From positions 34,722 through 98,721 of the forward strand of contig NZ_WHPN01000420.1 in assembly GCF_009735685.1 (NCBI RefSeq): a stretch of 64,000 nucleotides of DNA, read 5' to 3'. Positions within the stretch are counted from its first letter, which is position 1. The number at the start of each line of letters is the position of its first letter. The position numbers and the translations under genes are program-made. Below are positions 7,736 to 13,640 of the stretch, one piece after another. A model generated the notes under the pieces. The model was not told the origin of the DNA. It saw only the letters and a program-made list of their open reading frames with translations, and searched no databases. The stretch comes from Streptomyces lycii. GTDB lineage: Bacteria; Actinomycetota; Actinomycetes; Streptomycetales; Streptomycetaceae.

Positions 7736-8688
7736 CCCGTCCCGCCCGGCCGACCGATTCGCCCTACGCGCCCGCCGTCGCGGACCGCGAACTCACCGCG
7801 GTATCCGCCGACGGTTCCCGGCTGCACGTCGAACTGCACGGCCCCGAGGGGGCCCCCGCCGTCGTCCTCGTGCACGGCTGGACCTGCTCGACGCTCTTCT
7901 GGGCGCCGGTGATCCGTGAACTCCTGCCGGACCACCGGGTGGTCGTGTACGACCAGCGGGGCCACGGCCGCAGTCCGGCCCCGGGCCCCTCCGGCTACAG
8001 CACCACCGCGCTCGCCGACGACCTGGAGGCGGTGCTCGCGGCCACGCTTTCGCCGGGCGAGCGCGCGGTCGTCGCCGGACACTCGATGGGCGGCATGACC
8101 CTGATGGCGGCCGCCGGACGCCCGTTCCTGGCCGAGCGCGCCGCGGCCGTCCTGCTCGCCAACACCGGCAGCGCCCGGCTGGTGCCGGAGGCCGCCGTGG
8201 TGCCGCTGCGCCCCGGCCGGCTGCGGACCGCGCTGCAGGGCGCGCTGCTCGGCTCCACCCTGCCGCTCGGGCCGGTCACCGCGCTCTCCCGGGCCCTGCT
8301 CAAGTACGGGACGATGGGCCCGCGGGCGTCCCGGGAGCAGTCCGACGCGGTCGCCCGGGTCGTGCACGCCTGCCCGCGCAAGGTCCGCGGCCTCTGGGCG
8401 AAGAAGGTGCTCGCCGTGCTCGACGTCCACGCGAACCTCGCGCGGCTGACCGTGCCCGCGGCCGTCCTCACCGGCAGCGCCGACCGGCTCACCCCGCCGG
8501 TCCTCTCGCAGCGGATCGTGGAGGCCCTGCCCGTCCCGGCCGGTCTCACCTCGTTGCCCGGCCTCGGCCACATGACGCCGGTCGAGGCACCCGACAAGGT
8601 CGCCGGGGTGATCCGCGGCCTGGTCCGGGACCACCTCACCGGTACGGCCGCCGGCGAAGGAACACTGATCAAGGAGGAGTCGGCGTGA
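7732..8688 (+). CDS. Alpha/beta hydrolase (probable esterase)
   Basis: A 318-residue alpha/beta hydrolase. Seen in order: oxyanion segment VLVHGWTCS, nucleophile elbow GHSMGG, acid residue in GSADRLTPP, and catalytic His in GLGHMTP. It starts at an ATGA overlap with the monooxygenase stop, so translation is coupled. In this setting it probably hydrolyses the ester or lactone made by the monooxygenase. No signal peptide is seen; it is probably cytoplasmic. Confidence 0.9.
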   Translation: MTRPARPTDSPYAPAVADRELTAVSADGSRLHVELHGPEGAPAVVLVHGWTCSTLFWAPVIRELLPDHRVVVYDQRGHGRSPAPGPSGYSTTALADDLEAVLAATLSPGERAVVAGHSMGGMTLMAAAGRPFLAERAAAVLLANTGSARLVPEAAVVPLRPGRLRTALQGALLGSTLPLGPVTALSRALLKYGTMGPRASREQSDAVARVVHACPRKVRGLWAKKVLAVLDVHANLARLTVPAAVLTGSADRLTPPVLSQRIVEALPVPAGLTSLPGLGHMTPVEAPDKVAGVIRGLVRDHLTGTAAGEGTLIKEESA

Positions 8689-9578
8689 GCGGACGCAGGA
8701 ACCTGGAGGGCCGGGTCGCGGTCGTCACCGGCGCGGCCCGGGGGGTGGGCGAGCTGCTCGCCCGCAAGCTGGCCGCCCGGGGCGCCAAGGTGGCGCTGCT
8801 CGGGCTGGAGCCGGACGAGCTGAAGCAGGCCTCGGAGCGGATACCGACCGAGTCCGGCCACTGGCACGTGGACGTCACCGACTTCGAGGCGATGGACCGG
8901 GCCGCCCGCGAGGTCAAGGAGCGGTTCGGCAAGGTCGACATCGTCGTCGCGAACGCCGGTGTGGCGACGGGCGGGCCGTTCACGGAGTCCGACGCGGTCT
9001 CCTGGAACCGGGTCGTGCAGGTCAATCTGATGGGCAGCGCCACCACCGCCCGGGCCTTCCTGCCGCTGCTGGAGGAGAGCCGCGGCTATCTGCTCCAGGT
9101 CGCCTCGCTCGCGGCGATCACCCCGGCGCCGATGATGTCGGCGTACTGCGCGTCGAAGTCGGGTGTCGAGGCGTTCGCCCACTGCCTGCGGGCCGAAGTG
9201 GGCTACAAGGGCGTCAAGGTCGGCGTCGGCTACCTCAGCTGGACCGACACGGACATGGTGCGCGGCGCGGACCAGGACGACGTGATGCGCGAGCTGCGCG
9301 CGCGGCTGCCGTGGCCGGCGAACCGCACCTACCCGCTCGAACCGGCCGTCGACCGCATGGTCGCGGGCATCGAGCGGCGCTCGGCGCACGTCTACGGGCA
9401 GTGGTGGCTGCGCGGCATGCAGTCGGTCCGCGGCGTGCTGCCGGCGGTCATCGGCACCGTCGGGCAGCGCGAGATGCGCCGTGCCGCACCGAAGATCGCG
9501 GCGCAGGGCGTGAGCCGGGGCCTGGTCGGCGCCGGTGGCGCCGCGGACCAGAAGTCCCGCGAGGAGCGCGGCGTCTGA
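8685..9578 (+). CDS. Short-chain dehydrogenase/reductase
   Basis: A 297-residue classical SDR. The cofactor motif is TGAARGVG (residues about 16-23), then NAG, then the catalytic Ser in QVASLAA and the YCASK active site. Residues beyond 245 form an extra C-terminal helical region often seen in mycobacterial SadH-like SDRs. The GTG start overlaps the hydrolase stop as GTGA. In this operon an alcohol dehydrogenase role, feeding a ketone to the monooxygenase, is the simplest inference. It is followed by a strong hairpin. Confidence 0.9.
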   Translation: MSGRRNLEGRVAVVTGAARGVGELLARKLAARGAKVALLGLEPDELKQASERIPTESGHWHVDVTDFEAMDRAAREVKERFGKVDIVVANAGVATGGPFTESDAVSWNRVVQVNLMGSATTARAFLPLLEESRGYLLQVASLAAITPAPMMSAYCASKSGVEAFAHCLRAEVGYKGVKVGVGYLSWTDTDMVRGADQDDVMRELRARLPWPANRTYPLEPAVDRMVAGIERRSAHVYGQWWLRGMQSVRGVLPAVIGTVGQREMRRAAPKIAAQGVSRGLVGAGGAADQKSREERGV

Positions 9579-9628
9579 CGTTTCCCACAGTTCCGGGCGG
9601 GGTCGGGATCCGGCCGCCCGGGCACGCG

Positions 9629-9664
9629 CGAGGGCCCCGGAACGGGACAGTTCCGGGGCCCTCG
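9629..9664. terminator. Bidirectional hairpin terminator
   Basis: A perfect 15-bp stem (CGAGGGCCCCGGAAC and its complement) with the 6-nt loop GGGACA. It lies between the convergent SDR gene and the small peptide gene, 50 bp after the SDR stop and 17 bp beyond the peptide stop. There is no clean T run, as is common in streptomycetes. Confidence 0.8.
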
Positions 9665-9680
9665 GTGTTGCGGGTGCAGC

Positions 9681-9926
9681 TCAGGCCTGGAGGCCGGCGC
9701 TCAGGCCGCCCACGCCGACGACGCCGGCGTTCACGCCCGCGCCGGAGGCGTCCACGGCGATGCCGCCGACGGCGGCGTCGACACCGCTCAGGTCGGCGGA
9801 GAGACCGGCCGAGACGACGGCGTTCGCGGACACGCCGGCGGCGATGCCACCGGAGACGCCGTCCAGGTCGGCCTCGGTCAGTTCGGCGGTCTCTACGGAG
9901 AAGTCGTTGCGCATGGGGAGATCCAT
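9681..9926 (-). CDS. Small peptide with double-glycine type leader (RiPP/bacteriocin-like precursor)
   Basis: An 81-residue peptide, or 77 if it starts at the inner ATG 9914, which reads MRNDFSVE and has GGAT 8 nt upstream. The N-terminal part ends in ELTEADLDGVSGG, the classic leader signature of type A2 lanthipeptide-like and double-glycine bacteriocin precursors. The 54-residue core after GG is built of Gly, Ala, Val and Ser. It has three Asp, no Lys or Arg, no Thr and no Cys, so lanthionine rings cannot form. GxxxG spacings (GVNAG, GLSAG) recall helical two-peptide bacteriocins. No modifying enzyme, C39 peptidase or exporter lies nearby. Databases may label such peptides type A2 lantipeptide, but the core does not support that. 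It lies downstream of the tricorn-like protease on the same strand. Confidence 0.7.
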   Translation of the reverse strand: MDLPMRNDFSVETAELTEADLDGVSGGIAAGVSANAVVSAGLSADLSGVDAAVGGIAVDASGAGVNAGVVGVGGLSAGLQA

Positions 9927-9942
9927 TCGTTCTGGGGACGTA

Positions 9943-9963
9943 CACCTGTGTGCGTTACAGGTG
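9943..9963. promoter_or_regulatory. Perfect inverted repeat upstream of the small peptide gene
   Basis: CACCTGT-N7-ACAGGTG, 17 bp upstream of the peptide's outer ATG. A second hairpin with GACGGC arms (9982-9996) lies just beyond. On the minus strand GATAAT near 10036-10041 could serve as a -10. The repeat may be an operator or an mRNA leader hairpin. Confidence 0.5.
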
Positions 9964-10067
9964 CTGGCTGAAATGGAACACGACGGCGCAGCCGTCTCGC
10001 CACTCGCAGTAGTCGCCTTCGCAGGATCATCACATTATCGGGACGCTACCTGACGGTATGCAGCGGC

Positions 10068-13000
10068 TCATGCCGCCGGACCGGCCTCGGCGGGACCGTT
10101 TCCGGCCTTCCCGCCGCTCCGGGGCGGCAGTGGCGGACGGCGGCGGTCGGGGACGTCCGAGTAGTCCGGCGGGGTCGCCGCGGGCTGCTGCTCCAGCAGC
10201 TCCAGCGCCAGCCGCACCGCGTCGTCGAACTGCCGGCGCCGCCCCTCGGCCCAGTCCACCGGGGTGCGTTCCACCTCGAAGTCCGGTTCAACGCCGTGGT
10301 TCTCGACGCCCCAGCCGTACTCCTCGAACCAGGCGGCGTTCATCGGCACGGTGATGACCGTCCCGTCGCCGAGCCGGTGCCGGCCGGTCATCCCCACCAC
10401 GCCTCCCCAGGTGCGCAGCCCCACGACCGGCCCCAGCCCGAGCAGTTTGAAGGCCGCGGTGATCATGTCGCCGTCGGAGGAGGTCATCTCGTCCGCCAGC
10501 GCGACGACCGGGCCGCGCGGCGCGGTCGAGGCGTACGAGACGGGCTCGGCGTTCCGGGTCAGGTCCCAGCCCAGGATGGTGCGGGTGAGCTTCTCCACGA
10601 CCAGTTCGCTGATGTTGCCGCCCGCGTTGCCCCGTACGTCGACGACCAGCGCGGGCTTGGCCATCTCCATCCGCAGGTCCCGGTTGAACTGGGCCCAGCC
10701 GGAGCCGCCCATGTCCGGAATGTGCAGATAGCCGCAGCGGCCGCCGCTCAGCTCGTGCACGACCTCCCGGCGCTTGGCGACCCAGTCCTGGTAGCGCAGC
10801 GGCCGCTCGTCGACCAGCGGCACCACCGCCACCCGCCGCGACGGGCCCTCGCCGCCCTCGGCCGCGGGGGCGGCGCCCTCGGCGGACGGCGGGGTGAAGG
10901 TCAGCTCGACCGTGGTGCCGCCCGCGGCCGCCAGCAGCGGGAACGGCCCGGTCACCGGGTCCACGGCCCGCCCGTCGACATGGGTGAGCACCGAGCCGTC
11001 CGCGATGCCCGTCCCGGCGAGCGGCGACCGGGCCCGGGAGTCCGAGGACTCGCCCGGCAGGATGCGGCCGACGGCCCAGCCGCCGCTCCTGGTGCGGACG
11101 AAGTTGACGCCGAGCAGCCCGATCACCCGCTGGTAGTGCGGCGGCCCCTCGTTGCGGCGGGCGGCGGCCACGTACGCGTGCGAGGTGCCCAGCTCGCCCA
11201 GCACCTCCCGCAGCAGGTCGGCGAACTCGTCGGGGCTGGCGACCCGTTCGACCAGCGGCCGGTACTGCTCCAGCACCCCGTCCCAGTCGATGCCGCTCAT
11301 GCCCGGGTCCCAGAAGTACGCCCGGACGATCCGGCCCGCCTCGTCGTACGCCTGCCGCCACTCGGCCTCCGGGTCCGCCTCGTGCATGATCCGCCGCAGG
11401 TCGAGCGGGACGGTGGTGTCCGCGTCCGGCAGGTCGTTCGACGGTACGGCGCGCAGGTCGCCCTCGTCGTTCAGGACCAGCCGGGTGCCGTCCCCGCTCA
11501 CCGCGAACGAGTCCAGGTGCACCGCCAGCTCGGTGCGCTTGGCCTTGGCGATGTCGAAGTGCTCCAGCGTCGGCCGCCCGCTGGTGTCGGCGGGATTGGC
11601 GAAGGTCTCGCCGAGTGCCCCGGAGATCGGCCAGCGCAGCCACACCAGCCCGCCGCCCGCGACCGGGCGCAGCGAGGAGTACTTCGACGCGGCGACCGGG
11701 AAGGGCGTCACCCGGCTCTCCAGCCCCGCCGCCTCGACCAGCACCGAGCCGTCGCCGCCCAGCTCGTCCGGGTCCAGCCCGCCCGCCGCGGGCCGGCCCT
11801 CCGCCGACAGCGCGAACGGCGAGGGCGTCGTGGAGGACAGCGGCACCAGATACGGGCGGCAGCCGAGCGGGAACGACAGGTCGCCGGTGTGCACGTCGTA
11901 CACCGGGTCGAAACCGCGCCAGGACAGGAAGGCCAGATAGCGGCCGTCGCGGGTGAAGACGGGCTGCTCGTCCTCGAAGCGGCCGTCCGTGACGTCCAGG
12001 ACCAGCCGGTCGGTCAGCCGGGCCAGCTTGATCTGCCGCAGTGTGCGGCCGGTGCCCGGGTGGGACCAGGTGATCCAGTCGGAATCGGGGGAGAAGGCCA
12101 GGTCCCGTACCGGCCCGTTGTCCGAGCGGACCAGCTCCAGCACCTCGCCCGCGCCCTCCGGCAGCGCGTCCGCGATCAGCAGCCGGCCGTCGTGCGAGGC
12201 CACCGCGAGCAGTTCGCCGTCCGGGGAGGAGACCAGCTCGTGCACCCGCCCGAGCTTCCCGGCCGCGATGCGGCGCGGGTCGCGGCCGCCGCTGGCCCGG
12301 GGCAGATGGGCGATCTCGATCGCGTCCTCGCCCTCGGCGTCCGTGACGTACGCGACCTGGCCGGTCGGCCCGAGGATCTCCGGCAGCCGGATCCGTACGC
12401 CCGGGGTGTCGGTGATGGTGCGGGCCGGGCCGTCGCGGTGGGTGAGCCAGTAGAGGCTGCCGCGCACGCAGACGGCGCTCGCCCGGCCGGTGGTGTCCAC
12501 CGACAGCCCGCCCACGTGCGCGGCGGCGGGCACCTGGTAGCGGCGCCGGCCGGCCCGGGTTCCGCCGAGCCGTACGTCCAGCCTGCGCGGTACGCCGGCC
12601 GGGCCGAGGTCGTCGACCAGCCAGATGTCGCCGGCGCACTGGTAGACGACGCGTTCGCCGTCGGTCGCCGCGTGCCGGGCGTAGAAGTCGGGGTGGTCGG
12701 TGTGCCGCCGCAGGTCGGAGCCGTCGGGCCGGCAGGAGTAGAGATTGCCGACGCCCTCGTGGTCGGAGAGGAACGCGATCCGGCCGCCGACGAACATCGG
12801 GCAGTCGAGATGGCCGTTCAGGTCCGGCAGCAGCCGCTCGCCGTGCAGATACATCCGCCCGGTGGCGCCGCCGCGGTAGCGCTTCCAGGCCGCGGGCTCG
12901 TGCGGCGGCTTGCCGGTGAGCAGCAGGGTCTTGTGCTCGCCGTCCGTGTCCGCGCAGGCGATGTTCGACACCGGCCCCCAGGGCAGCCGGCCGCCGGGGC

Positions 13001-13397
13001 CGCCGTCGAGGGGCACCTTGTAGGCCCAGGAGTAGTACGAGAACGGCTCGCCGTGCGAGGCCACGGCGAGGATGTGGCCGTCCGGGTTCCAGCCGCAGAC
13101 CCTGGTGTCGGTGCTGCCCCAGTAGCTGAGCCGGCGGGCGGGGCCGCCCTCGGTGCGGACCAGGTGGATCTCCGGGTCCAGGCTGCGCCAGTTGGTGTAG
13201 GCGATGTGCCGGCCGTCGGGGGAGAAGCGGGGGTGACCGGTGCGGGTCCGGTCGACCGTCAGCCGCCAGGCCCGCTCCGGTTCCGTGCCGGCGGGGGCGA
13301 GAGGGGCCAGCCAGAGGTCGTCCTCGGCCGTGAAGCAGAGGAGATCGCCGTGCAGGTGCGGAAAGCGGAGATACGCGGCATCACTCACCTTTTCCAT
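10068..13397 (-). CDS. Tricorn-like S41 family serine protease
   Basis: A 1109-residue homologue of tricorn protease, close to the family length. The N-terminal two thirds are beta-propeller repeats of the WD40/PD40 type (for example HPRFSPDGRHIAYTNW). A PDZ domain and a C-terminal S41 catalytic core follow, with the nucleophile in MTSSDGDM and the oxyanion segment VVGLRTWGG. It has no signal peptide or membrane segment, so it acts in the cytoplasm, probably trimming oligopeptides released by other proteases. ATG 13397 gives the conserved opening AYLRFPHLHGD. Its C-terminal end lies 141 bp before the small double-glycine peptide gene. Confidence 0.93.
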   Translation of the reverse strand: MEKVSDAAYLRFPHLHGDLLCFTAEDDLWLAPLAPAGTEPERAWRLTVDRTRTGHPRFSPDGRHIAYTNWRSLDPEIHLVRTEGGPARRLSYWGSTDTRVCGWNPDGHILAVASHGEPFSYYSWAYKVPLDGGPGGRLPWGPVSNIACADTDGEHKTLLLTGKPPHEPAAWKRYRGGATGRMYLHGERLLPDLNGHLDCPMFVGGRIAFLSDHEGVGNLYSCRPDGSDLRRHTDHPDFYARHAATDGERVVYQCAGDIWLVDDLGPAGVPRRLDVRLGGTRAGRRRYQVPAAAHVGGLSVDTTGRASAVCVRGSLYWLTHRDGPARTITDTPGVRIRLPEILGPTGQVAYVTDAEGEDAIEIAHLPRASGGRDPRRIAAGKLGRVHELVSSPDGELLAVASHDGRLLIADALPEGAGEVLELVRSDNGPVRDLAFSPDSDWITWSHPGTGRTLRQIKLARLTDRLVLDVTDGRFEDEQPVFTRDGRYLAFLSWRGFDPVYDVHTGDLSFPLGCRPYLVPLSSTTPSPFALSAEGRPAAGGLDPDELGGDGSVLVEAAGLESRVTPFPVAASKYSSLRPVAGGGLVWLRWPISGALGETFANPADTSGRPTLEHFDIAKAKRTELAVHLDSFAVSGDGTRLVLNDEGDLRAVPSNDLPDADTTVPLDLRRIMHEADPEAEWRQAYDEAGRIVRAYFWDPGMSGIDWDGVLEQYRPLVERVASPDEFADLLREVLGELGTSHAYVAAARRNEGPPHYQRVIGLLGVNFVRTRSGGWAVGRILPGESSDSRARSPLAGTGIADGSVLTHVDGRAVDPVTGPFPLLAAAGGTTVELTFTPPSAEGAAPAAEGGEGPSRRVAVVPLVDERPLRYQDWVAKRREVVHELSGGRCGYLHIPDMGGSGWAQFNRDLRMEMAKPALVVDVRGNAGGNISELVVEKLTRTILGWDLTRNAEPVSYASTAPRGPVVALADEMTSSDGDMITAAFKLLGLGPVVGLRTWGGVVGMTGRHRLGDGTVITVPMNAAWFEEYGWGVENHGVEPDFEVERTPVDWAEGRRRQFDDAVRLALELLEQQPAATPPDYSDVPDRRRPPLPPRSGGKAGNGPAEAGPAA

Positions 13398-13640
13398 GGT
13401 TCGGGCGGTGCGGGTGTGTGGCAACTCGTGATGGCGGTGGTCCGGGCGGCTGCGGTGGTCCGGCGGCCGGGAGCCCGGTGATGTTCGCGCTCGTGGTGCC
13501 CCGCGGCGGGCGGCGGCCGGGTCCGGGGCGGCTCGGGCCCTGCCGCGGGGCGCGGGCTTCCGCGGCGGGCGCGGACGCGGCTCCCGCGCGGGGCGCACGA
13601 CTGCGCGCGCCCCCGGGAGAGAACGGCGGGACGCACGCTC

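What the first reader, a model, noticed from the sequence alone, without database searches (positions are those of the whole stretch)
9681..9926. Cysteine-free double-glycine leader peptide beside a tricorn-like protease
The sequence shows a leader ending ELTEADLDGVSGG and a 54-residue Gly/Ala/Val/Ser core without Cys, Thr, Lys or Arg. Known double-glycine precursors are lanthipeptides, Nif11 types or bacteriocins; this core cannot form thioether rings and is not cationic. No export or modification genes are nearby. I infer either a helix-forming (GxxxG) secreted peptide or an orphan precursor handled by distant enzymes. The upstream tricorn-like protease may degrade it.
Basis: partly seen in the sequence, partly recalled or inferred. 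Interest (0 to 1): 0.7.

Follow-up and report, generated by a model that had tools for sequence, protein, structure and literature searches.

The report
Unlinked Streptomyces double-glycine export peptide
This small gene is a stray member of a Streptomyces family of almost cysteine-free, probably secreted peptides that nearly always occurs together with one particular peptide exporter, and most family genes sampled share a short DNA signal in front of them.

Summary
The ORF is real, on the minus strand (start better at 9914, 77 aa: 23-aa leader MRNDFSVETAELTEADLDGVSGG, 54-aa core without C, T, K, R). It belongs to a family seen, among genomes sampled, only in Streptomyces and close kin. A family profile finds members in 144 of 199 genus genomes; the NHLM-type exporter ATPase/peptidase (TIGR03796) passes its cut-off in 145; 141 have both. 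Of 150 listed peptide genes 118 lie beside that exporter. The window gene is unlinked, but its genome carries an operon on another contig: paralogous peptide, HlyD, C39-ABC, ABC2, followed there by a P450 gene not found after ABC2 in 32 other operons.

A second finding: CGTGCTTTGATCCW occurs 97 times in 199 genomes (reversed control 0); 93 of 97 lie just upstream of a family gene. The window gene has only a degenerate copy.

Most likely it is a peptide cleaved and exported in trans by the NHLM exporter, probably unmodified; its role is unknown. Tricorn is not linked to it and GxxxG is not enriched. I found no description of the family in the papers searched; one 'type A2 lantipeptide' in print may be a member, unverified.

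The parts
9681..9914 (-). Precursor gene (stop codon included), 77 aa; alternative upstream ATG at 9926
9846..9914 (-). 23-residue leader MRNDFSVETAELTEADLDGVSGG (L-12, L-7, V-4, G-2, G-1)
   Evidence: 33.7 bits, 0 of 2000 shuffles as good
9684..9845 (-). 54-residue core, no C/T/K/R, Gly/Ala/Val/Ser-rich, anionic; predicted mature peptide
   Evidence: weak positional similarity to the family
9922..9928 (-). GAATGGA, ribosome-binding-like site resembling the family's GAAGGGA
10023..10035 (-). Degenerate copy of the family's upstream element (ATGTGATGATCCT, 9 of 13 to GTGCTTTGATCCT; readable as GTGAT--GATCCT)
   Evidence: GC-matched random segments reach its score in 89 of 4000
9980..9995 (-). 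Terminator-like hairpin between the tricorn stop and the peptide start; could end tricorn transcription or lie in the peptide's 5' leader
   Evidence: consensus scan; 1 found, shuffles mean 0.2
9630..9663. Perfect 14-bp inverted repeat between the converging peptide and SDR genes, possible bidirectional terminator (no T run; not flagged by the scan)
   Evidence: sequence
10068..13598 (-). Tricorn-like protease neighbour (TolB-propeller and S41-like matches); no sign of a functional link
8685..9578 (+). SDR dehydrogenase neighbour; no sign of a functional link

Best explanation
The gene encodes an unlinked precursor of a Streptomyces family of hydrophobic peptides that lack Cys and mostly lack K and R. 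Its leader is recognised and cut after Gly-Gly by the C39 domain of the NHLM-type exporter encoded on another contig of the same genome, and the 54-residue core is exported in trans through ABC1/ABC2 with the HlyD-like protein, most likely without modification. Shown: family membership of the leader, the exporter with its own paralogous precursor in this genome, genus-wide co-occurrence and adjacency, an upstream element shared by most family genes sampled. Inferred: recognition, cleavage, export, absence of modification, and that this particular gene is expressed. Least certain: what the peptide does (membrane-active antagonist, surface or self-assembling peptide, or signal).
For: Own genome: L037 (G000:C313) holds the paralogous precursor, HlyD (TIGR03794, 162 bits, cut-off 156.2), ABC1 (TIGR03796, 1012, cut-off 853.3) and ABC2 (TIGR03797, 890, cut-off 709.4). 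ABC1 has Cys74 and His147 in C39-like contexts and a following Asp-Pro and aligns over 66-771 with PDB 4ry2, an ABC-type bacteriocin transporter (E 1.7e-91). Genus: 141 of 144 peptide genomes have ABC1 over cut-off and 141 of 145 ABC1 genomes have the peptide, among 199 (Fisher 8e-39, ignoring relatedness). In 80 named loci, picked by likeness to an operon-type peptide, HlyD follows the peptide gene in 80 of 80 and ABC1+ABC2 in 77 of 77 with enough DNA. Leader changes more slowly than core (dN/dS 0.28-0.37 against 0.59-0.86). Unlinked members are common: 27 of the 150 listed places, all 32 non-adjacent ones having been checked for HlyD or contig ends.
Against: No expression, cleavage or secretion data. 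The core aligns weakly (6.7 bits; 25 of 2000 shuffles as good). The upstream element of this gene is degenerate (9 of 13; shuffled orphan upstreams reach 9 in about 20%). No homologue closer than 44-52% identity in 392 genomes, so it could be a decaying stray copy. In this genome a P450 gene on the same strand follows ABC2 (L037 1210-2643), a possible tailoring enzyme. I did not search the genome for modifying enzymes other than LanM. Operon and gene lie on different contigs of a draft.
Confidence: 0.7

Rival explanations
1. A recently stranded, decaying copy: once co-regulated and exported, its promoter element and core have drifted and it is now silent.
For: Degenerate element, weak core match, found at this locus in one genome only among those seen, no close homologue in 392 genomes.
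Against: Intact frame and leader, GC3 0.92, a plausible ribosome site; a C/K/R-free core is kept. Some MRNDF-like relatives carry a variant element too (GTGATCTCATCCT in L033, L239, L242, L243).
Confidence: 0.2
2. A precursor of a modified natural product: an enzyme, for instance the P450 beside this genome's exporter, alters the core before export.
For: P450 gene directly after ABC2 in the own operon. NHLM exporters elsewhere accompany modified precursors (PMC2887384, passages read). Weak matches to ATP-grasp-target and lantibiotic leader models.
Against: The P450 is absent after ABC2 in 32 of 32 other operons checked (1.2-4.9 kb each), and no modifying gene is common to the 80 loci in up to 6 kb upstream. 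No Cys in 58 of 60 cores; no LanM over cut-off here; leader-model matches of the window are below their cut-offs.
Confidence: 0.15
3. Not a coding gene, or an accidental GG motif.
For: High-GC DNA holds many long chance ORFs.
Against: Held-out HMM 45 bits, leader beats 2000 of 2000 shuffles; codon-position GC fits this frame and neither of two overlapping ORFs.
Confidence: 0.02

Closest known systems
NHLM/NHLP export system (TIGR03794, TIGR03796, TIGR03797; Haft et al. 2010, PMC2887384, passages read)
   Same: The same three exporter genes, own-genome scores over the cut-offs; several precursors per genome.
   Different: Leader is short (21-24 aa) and matches neither the nitrile-hydratase-like nor the Nif11-like precursor models; no modifying gene shared by the operons; cores almost all lack Cys.
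C39-domain exporters with double-glycine substrates (PDB 4ry2, ABC-type bacteriocin transporter; known to me as PCAT1, recalled)
   Same: ABC1 aligns over residues 66-771; leader has the L/L/V/GG pattern.
   Different: Accompanied by a second ABC protein and an HlyD-like protein; here far from the substrate gene.
Type-A lantibiotic Pfam PF04604 and the database name 'type A2 lantipeptide'
   Same: 9 of 26 members hit PF04604 at E up to 1, best 1.2e-4. One paper names a Streptomyces 'type A2 lantipeptide' in a region that also lists Peptidase_C39 and a p450 (PMC13047742, section 3.5 read); possibly a member, not verified.
   Different: Cys-free cores, no LanM over cut-off here: the name would be wrong for this family. 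The window peptide itself has no Pfam match.
Unmodified class II bacteriocins with GG leaders (Pfam Bacteriocin_IIc PF10439)
   Same: 7 of 26 members hit the model at E up to 1, best 0.004; Gly/Ala-rich hydrophobic core.
   Different: Window core anionic; no conserved immunity-like neighbour among called ORFs.

Membership tests
C39/NHLM-exported double-glycine precursors | Leader ending in GG with hydrophobic residues at -12, -7, -4 | tested here: met
   Sequence; alignment; held-out leader score. The positional rule is recalled.
C39/NHLM-exported double-glycine precursors | Genomic association of the family with the exporter | tested here: met
   the window gene itself is unlinked.
C39/NHLM-exported double-glycine precursors | Cleavage after GG and export | not testable with these tools
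   Needs biochemistry.
NHLP / Nif11-type precursors | Leader matching the NHLP or Nif11 precursor models | tested here: not met
   No such model among the hits to E 1 for 26 members or to E 10 for the window.
Lanthipeptide | Cys in the core | tested here: not met
   No Cys; 58 of 60 family cores, the window's included, have none.
Lanthipeptide | LanM in the genome | tested here: not met
   Best 95 bits, cut-off 304; other synthetase classes not tested.
Class II bacteriocin | Cationic core, immunity gene, killing activity | tested here: inconclusive
   Core anionic; no conserved extra neighbour among called ORFs; activity not testable.
ATP-grasp target RiPP (TIGR04497) | Score over the curated cut-off of 32 | tested here: not met
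   16.8 bits.
Element-marked Streptomyces regulon described here | GTGCTTTGATCC-like element about 60-170 nt before the start codon | tested here: inconclusive
   Window copy 9 of 13, PWM 5.0, reached by 6 of 3976 window segments but 89 of 4000 GC-matched segments.

The most novel reading that the evidence does not exclude
About seven in ten Streptomyces species run a dedicated, undescribed peptide-secretion regulon: one NHLM-type exporter serves several scattered genes for unmodified, cysteine-free, mostly K/R-free hydrophobic peptides, and a single 13-14-bp promoter-like element marks almost nothing else in the genome. The product would be a conserved trait of the genus (surface, developmental or antagonistic peptide), not an occasional bacteriocin, and the window gene is a fresh recruit or stray of it.
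Probability: 0.5. Interest if true: 0.75.

Novelty: new variant of a known kind. Interest (0 to 1): 0.6.

Why it matters
Streptomyces is among the best studied bacterial genera, yet a peptide-plus-exporter pair present in 141 of 199 sampled genomes has, in the papers I could search, no described function, and its peptides may be filed under a lantibiotic name they cannot deserve. The shared upstream element gives a way to list much of the regulon by sequence alone and to look for its regulator, and the one-exporter, many-scattered-precursors layout can be tested with a single exporter deletion and mass spectrometry.

Tried and rejected
Helix/GxxxG idea: 2 motifs against 2.3 expected. Fold: AlphaFold2 on alignment A1 gave pLDDT 53, pTM 0.20, so no fold search was made. 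Tricorn link: not supported. Lanthipeptide: not supported. P450 as a general partner: the own operon has one, 32 of 32 other operons checked have none after ABC2. RNA structure between element and start codon: single-sequence folds show hairpins and mean z is -1.47 over 95 UTRs with 34% below -2, against mononucleotide shuffles, but alignment folds gave 0 of 3 and 4 of 12 pairs with double changes, on alignments that misplace the 3' arms: inconclusive. Rfam: no match in 4 loci. The first genome-contig scan, with the window peptide alone, found no relative. A guess at a Streptomyces coelicolor locus (SCO0753-0756, from memory) was only a paper search (listing seen, nothing read) and came to nothing. 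Promoter scan of 9400-10200: no sigma-70 consensus. Paper searches without a description of this family: (open-licence PMC library only; passages of PMC2887384, PMC13047742 and PMC3951391 seen, one section of PMC13047742, otherwise listings).

Rows and limits: one search used the 150 peptide places listed (the list was cut) and the ABC1 rows over cut-off listed. Of 32 non-adjacent places, five are operon-linked after all: G081, G163, G002 and G150 break at contig ends with HlyD beside them, and in G180 HlyD and the start of ABC1 follow; 27 remain; 80 operon loci gave 73 distinct peptides, 72 after removing similar upstreams; 34 loci taken as orphans gave 31 peptides, one of which (L232, G180) one search showed to be operon-linked, leaving 30; 60 distinct peptides caught by a GG-leader pattern. 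One search counted 89 of 97 sites (minus-strand distances approximate); 4 more (G119, L280, L281, L282) were added by reading translations; the G119 gene looks frame-shifted in the core. The gene callers see only ORFs of 60 or 80 aa and more, and the loci mostly end within ABC2. dN/dS used pairs with pS 0.02-0.5.

Full report
What is there. Homologues start at the window's Met5, in most cases 6-10 nt after a GAAGGG-like site; the window has GAATGGA 7 nt before it. The gene is therefore best taken as 9914-9681: a 23-residue leader MRNDFSVETAELTEADLDGVSGG and a 54-residue core without C, T, K or R. Codon-position GC (0.77, 0.55, 0.92) fits this frame and neither of two overlapping ORFs. A held-out profile gives 45 bits to the whole peptide and 33.7 to the leader (0 of 2000 shuffles as good), but only 6.7 to the core (25 of 2000 as good).

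The family. Similarity search from the window peptide found matches in 90 of 199 genus genomes, its own included, at E 0.01. The consensus leader is MN..PQVET.EISDADLDNVSGG. Of 60 distinct cores, 2 have Cys, 3 have K or R, none has Trp; Gly, Val, Ala, Thr and Leu make up about three quarters. A profile finds members in 144 of 199 genus genomes and in 22 of 296 genomes across the class, all 22 in the window's genus, 1 of 114 genera. Of 465 relatives in named genomes the best 80 are listed: Streptomyces apart from two Actinacidiphila records and one labelled Kitasatospora aureofaciens.

The exporter. The own-genome paralogue (L002, G000:C313) stands directly before an HlyD-like protein matching TIGR03794, then TIGR03796 and TIGR03797, all over the cut-offs. 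ABC1 carries Cys74 and His147 in C39-like contexts and aligns over residues 66-771 with PDB 4ry2. ABC1 passes its cut-off in 145 of 199 genomes; 141 have ABC1 and peptide, 3 peptide only, 4 ABC1 only, 51 neither (the Fisher P of 8e-39 ignores phylogeny). The three peptide-only genomes are one 79%-complete assembly (G001) and two with full-size but sub-threshold ABC1 matches (G119, G180); HlyD stands beside the peptide in both of the latter. Of 150 listed peptide places 118 lie within 6 kb of ABC1; of the other 32, five are operon-linked on closer look and 27 are not. In 80 named loci, found with an operon-type query, HlyD follows in 80 of 80 at 300-443 nt from the peptide start.

Modifying genes. 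Upstream of the peptide no gene is common to the 80 loci; one neighbour is shared by 38 and another by 34 (ORFs of 60 aa and more, up to 6 kb). After ABC2 no called gene is shared by more than 8 of 32 operons (1.2-4.9 kb). Against my reading: in the window's own genome a cytochrome P450 gene follows ABC2 on the same strand (L037 1210-2643; its match to the RiPP P450 ApyO model is 51 bits, cut-off 525). It has no counterpart after ABC2 in the 32 other operons, so it is not a family feature, but a local tailoring role is open. I infer that in general the peptides leave unmodified.

The element. Upstream of the operon precursors lies GTGCTTTGATCC[TA]: 69 of 72 dereplicated operon upstreams match at least 12 of 13 positions of GTGCTTTGATCCT and 72 of 72 at least 10. 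Of 30 unlinked precursors, the window's included, 25 match at least 10 and 20 at least 11. Shuffled upstreams reach 10 in 2.3-2.8% and 11 in 0.2-0.3% (one of the 31 'orphans' counted there was later found operon-linked). Since the motif was first noticed in part of these sequences, the stronger check is the genome scan: CGTGCTTTGATCCW occurs 97 times in 86 of 199 genomes, the reversed pattern never. 89 sites lie about 70-142 nt before a listed family gene and four more before family genes found by reading the DNA (G119, whose core looks frame-shifted, and L280, L281, L282). The other four are G106:C34, G072:C13, and G115 and G066, where the same oxidase-like gene follows. A TTGG about 20 nt before CGTG makes an extended -10 promoter one possible reading; the regulator is unknown.

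The window gene and the element. Its best match is 9 of 13 at 10035-10023, readable as the consensus with two bases missing. Its matrix score is reached by 6 of 3976 random window segments but by 89 of 4000 GC-matched segments; a matrix with two columns left out, tried after the fact, is reached by 4 of 1481. This is suggestive only. The own operon scores 13.6 with GTGATTTCATCTG at -148. In one search the consensus with one mismatch had a single match in this genome, not at either peptide gene.

Where it sits. SDR and tricorn genes converge here as in other Streptomyces. A 1-kb probe matched 391 of 392 genomes; in the rows listed every other genome's match starts at query position 665 or later, beyond the peptide gene. 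None of 29 fetched loci has a GG peptide there; many have an unrelated small charged protein in the gap. No homologue closer than 44-52% identity appears in 392 genomes. The gene looks like a local, lineage-specific placement.

Mechanism. Shown: leader family, exporter with its own precursor in this genome, genus-wide co-occurrence, dispersed members, an element shared by most sampled. Inferred: the C39 domain cuts this leader after GG and the core leaves through the NHLM exporter in trans. The role is open; cores evolve faster than leaders (dN/dS 0.59-0.86 against 0.28-0.37) yet keep their composition, which fits a membrane-active or a surface peptide. I lean slightly to a secreted, membrane- or surface-active peptide, without direct evidence.

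Known or new. The exporter is a known kind (PMC2887384, passages read). The precursor models defined there are nitrile-hydratase- and Nif11-like; this family matches neither. Some members hit the type-A lantibiotic model PF04604 (9 of 26 at E up to 1), which may be the source of the name 'type A2 lantipeptide' (one Streptomyces example in PMC13047742, section 3.5; membership not verified). I found no paper describing the family or the element in the searches, which cover open-licence PMC papers only. I rate it a new variant of a known kind.

Noticed in passing
L251 and L278 (G115, G066): The exact element also stands before an oxidase-like gene in two genomes in which the family profile found no peptide (one search hits do not include them).
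   Followed up: partly
L037:1210-2643 (own genome, G000:C313): A cytochrome P450 gene follows the exporter's ABC2 on the same strand; no counterpart after ABC2 in 32 other operons.
   Followed up: partly
L101, L103, L111, L118 and others, SDR-tricorn gap: In many other Streptomyces the gap holds a small, highly charged protein starting like MGIKDQFQDKA (CsbD-like by eye), not seen in the window.
   Followed up: no
L056:7953-8198: An unlinked family member whose core carries repeated PGL units, collagen-like.
   Followed up: no
L035, L064: Two unlinked members have one Cys in the core; they and several others end in TTS-like tails.
   Followed up: no
5' leaders of operon precursors, e.g. L175:1682-1824, L186:2147-2286: A CCCCTT-like stretch upstream could pair with the GAAGGG ribosome site, hinting at translational control.
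   Followed up: partly
G191, G009, G099: Some genomes hold four or five family matches with one NHLM ABC1 over the cut-off.
   Followed up: no
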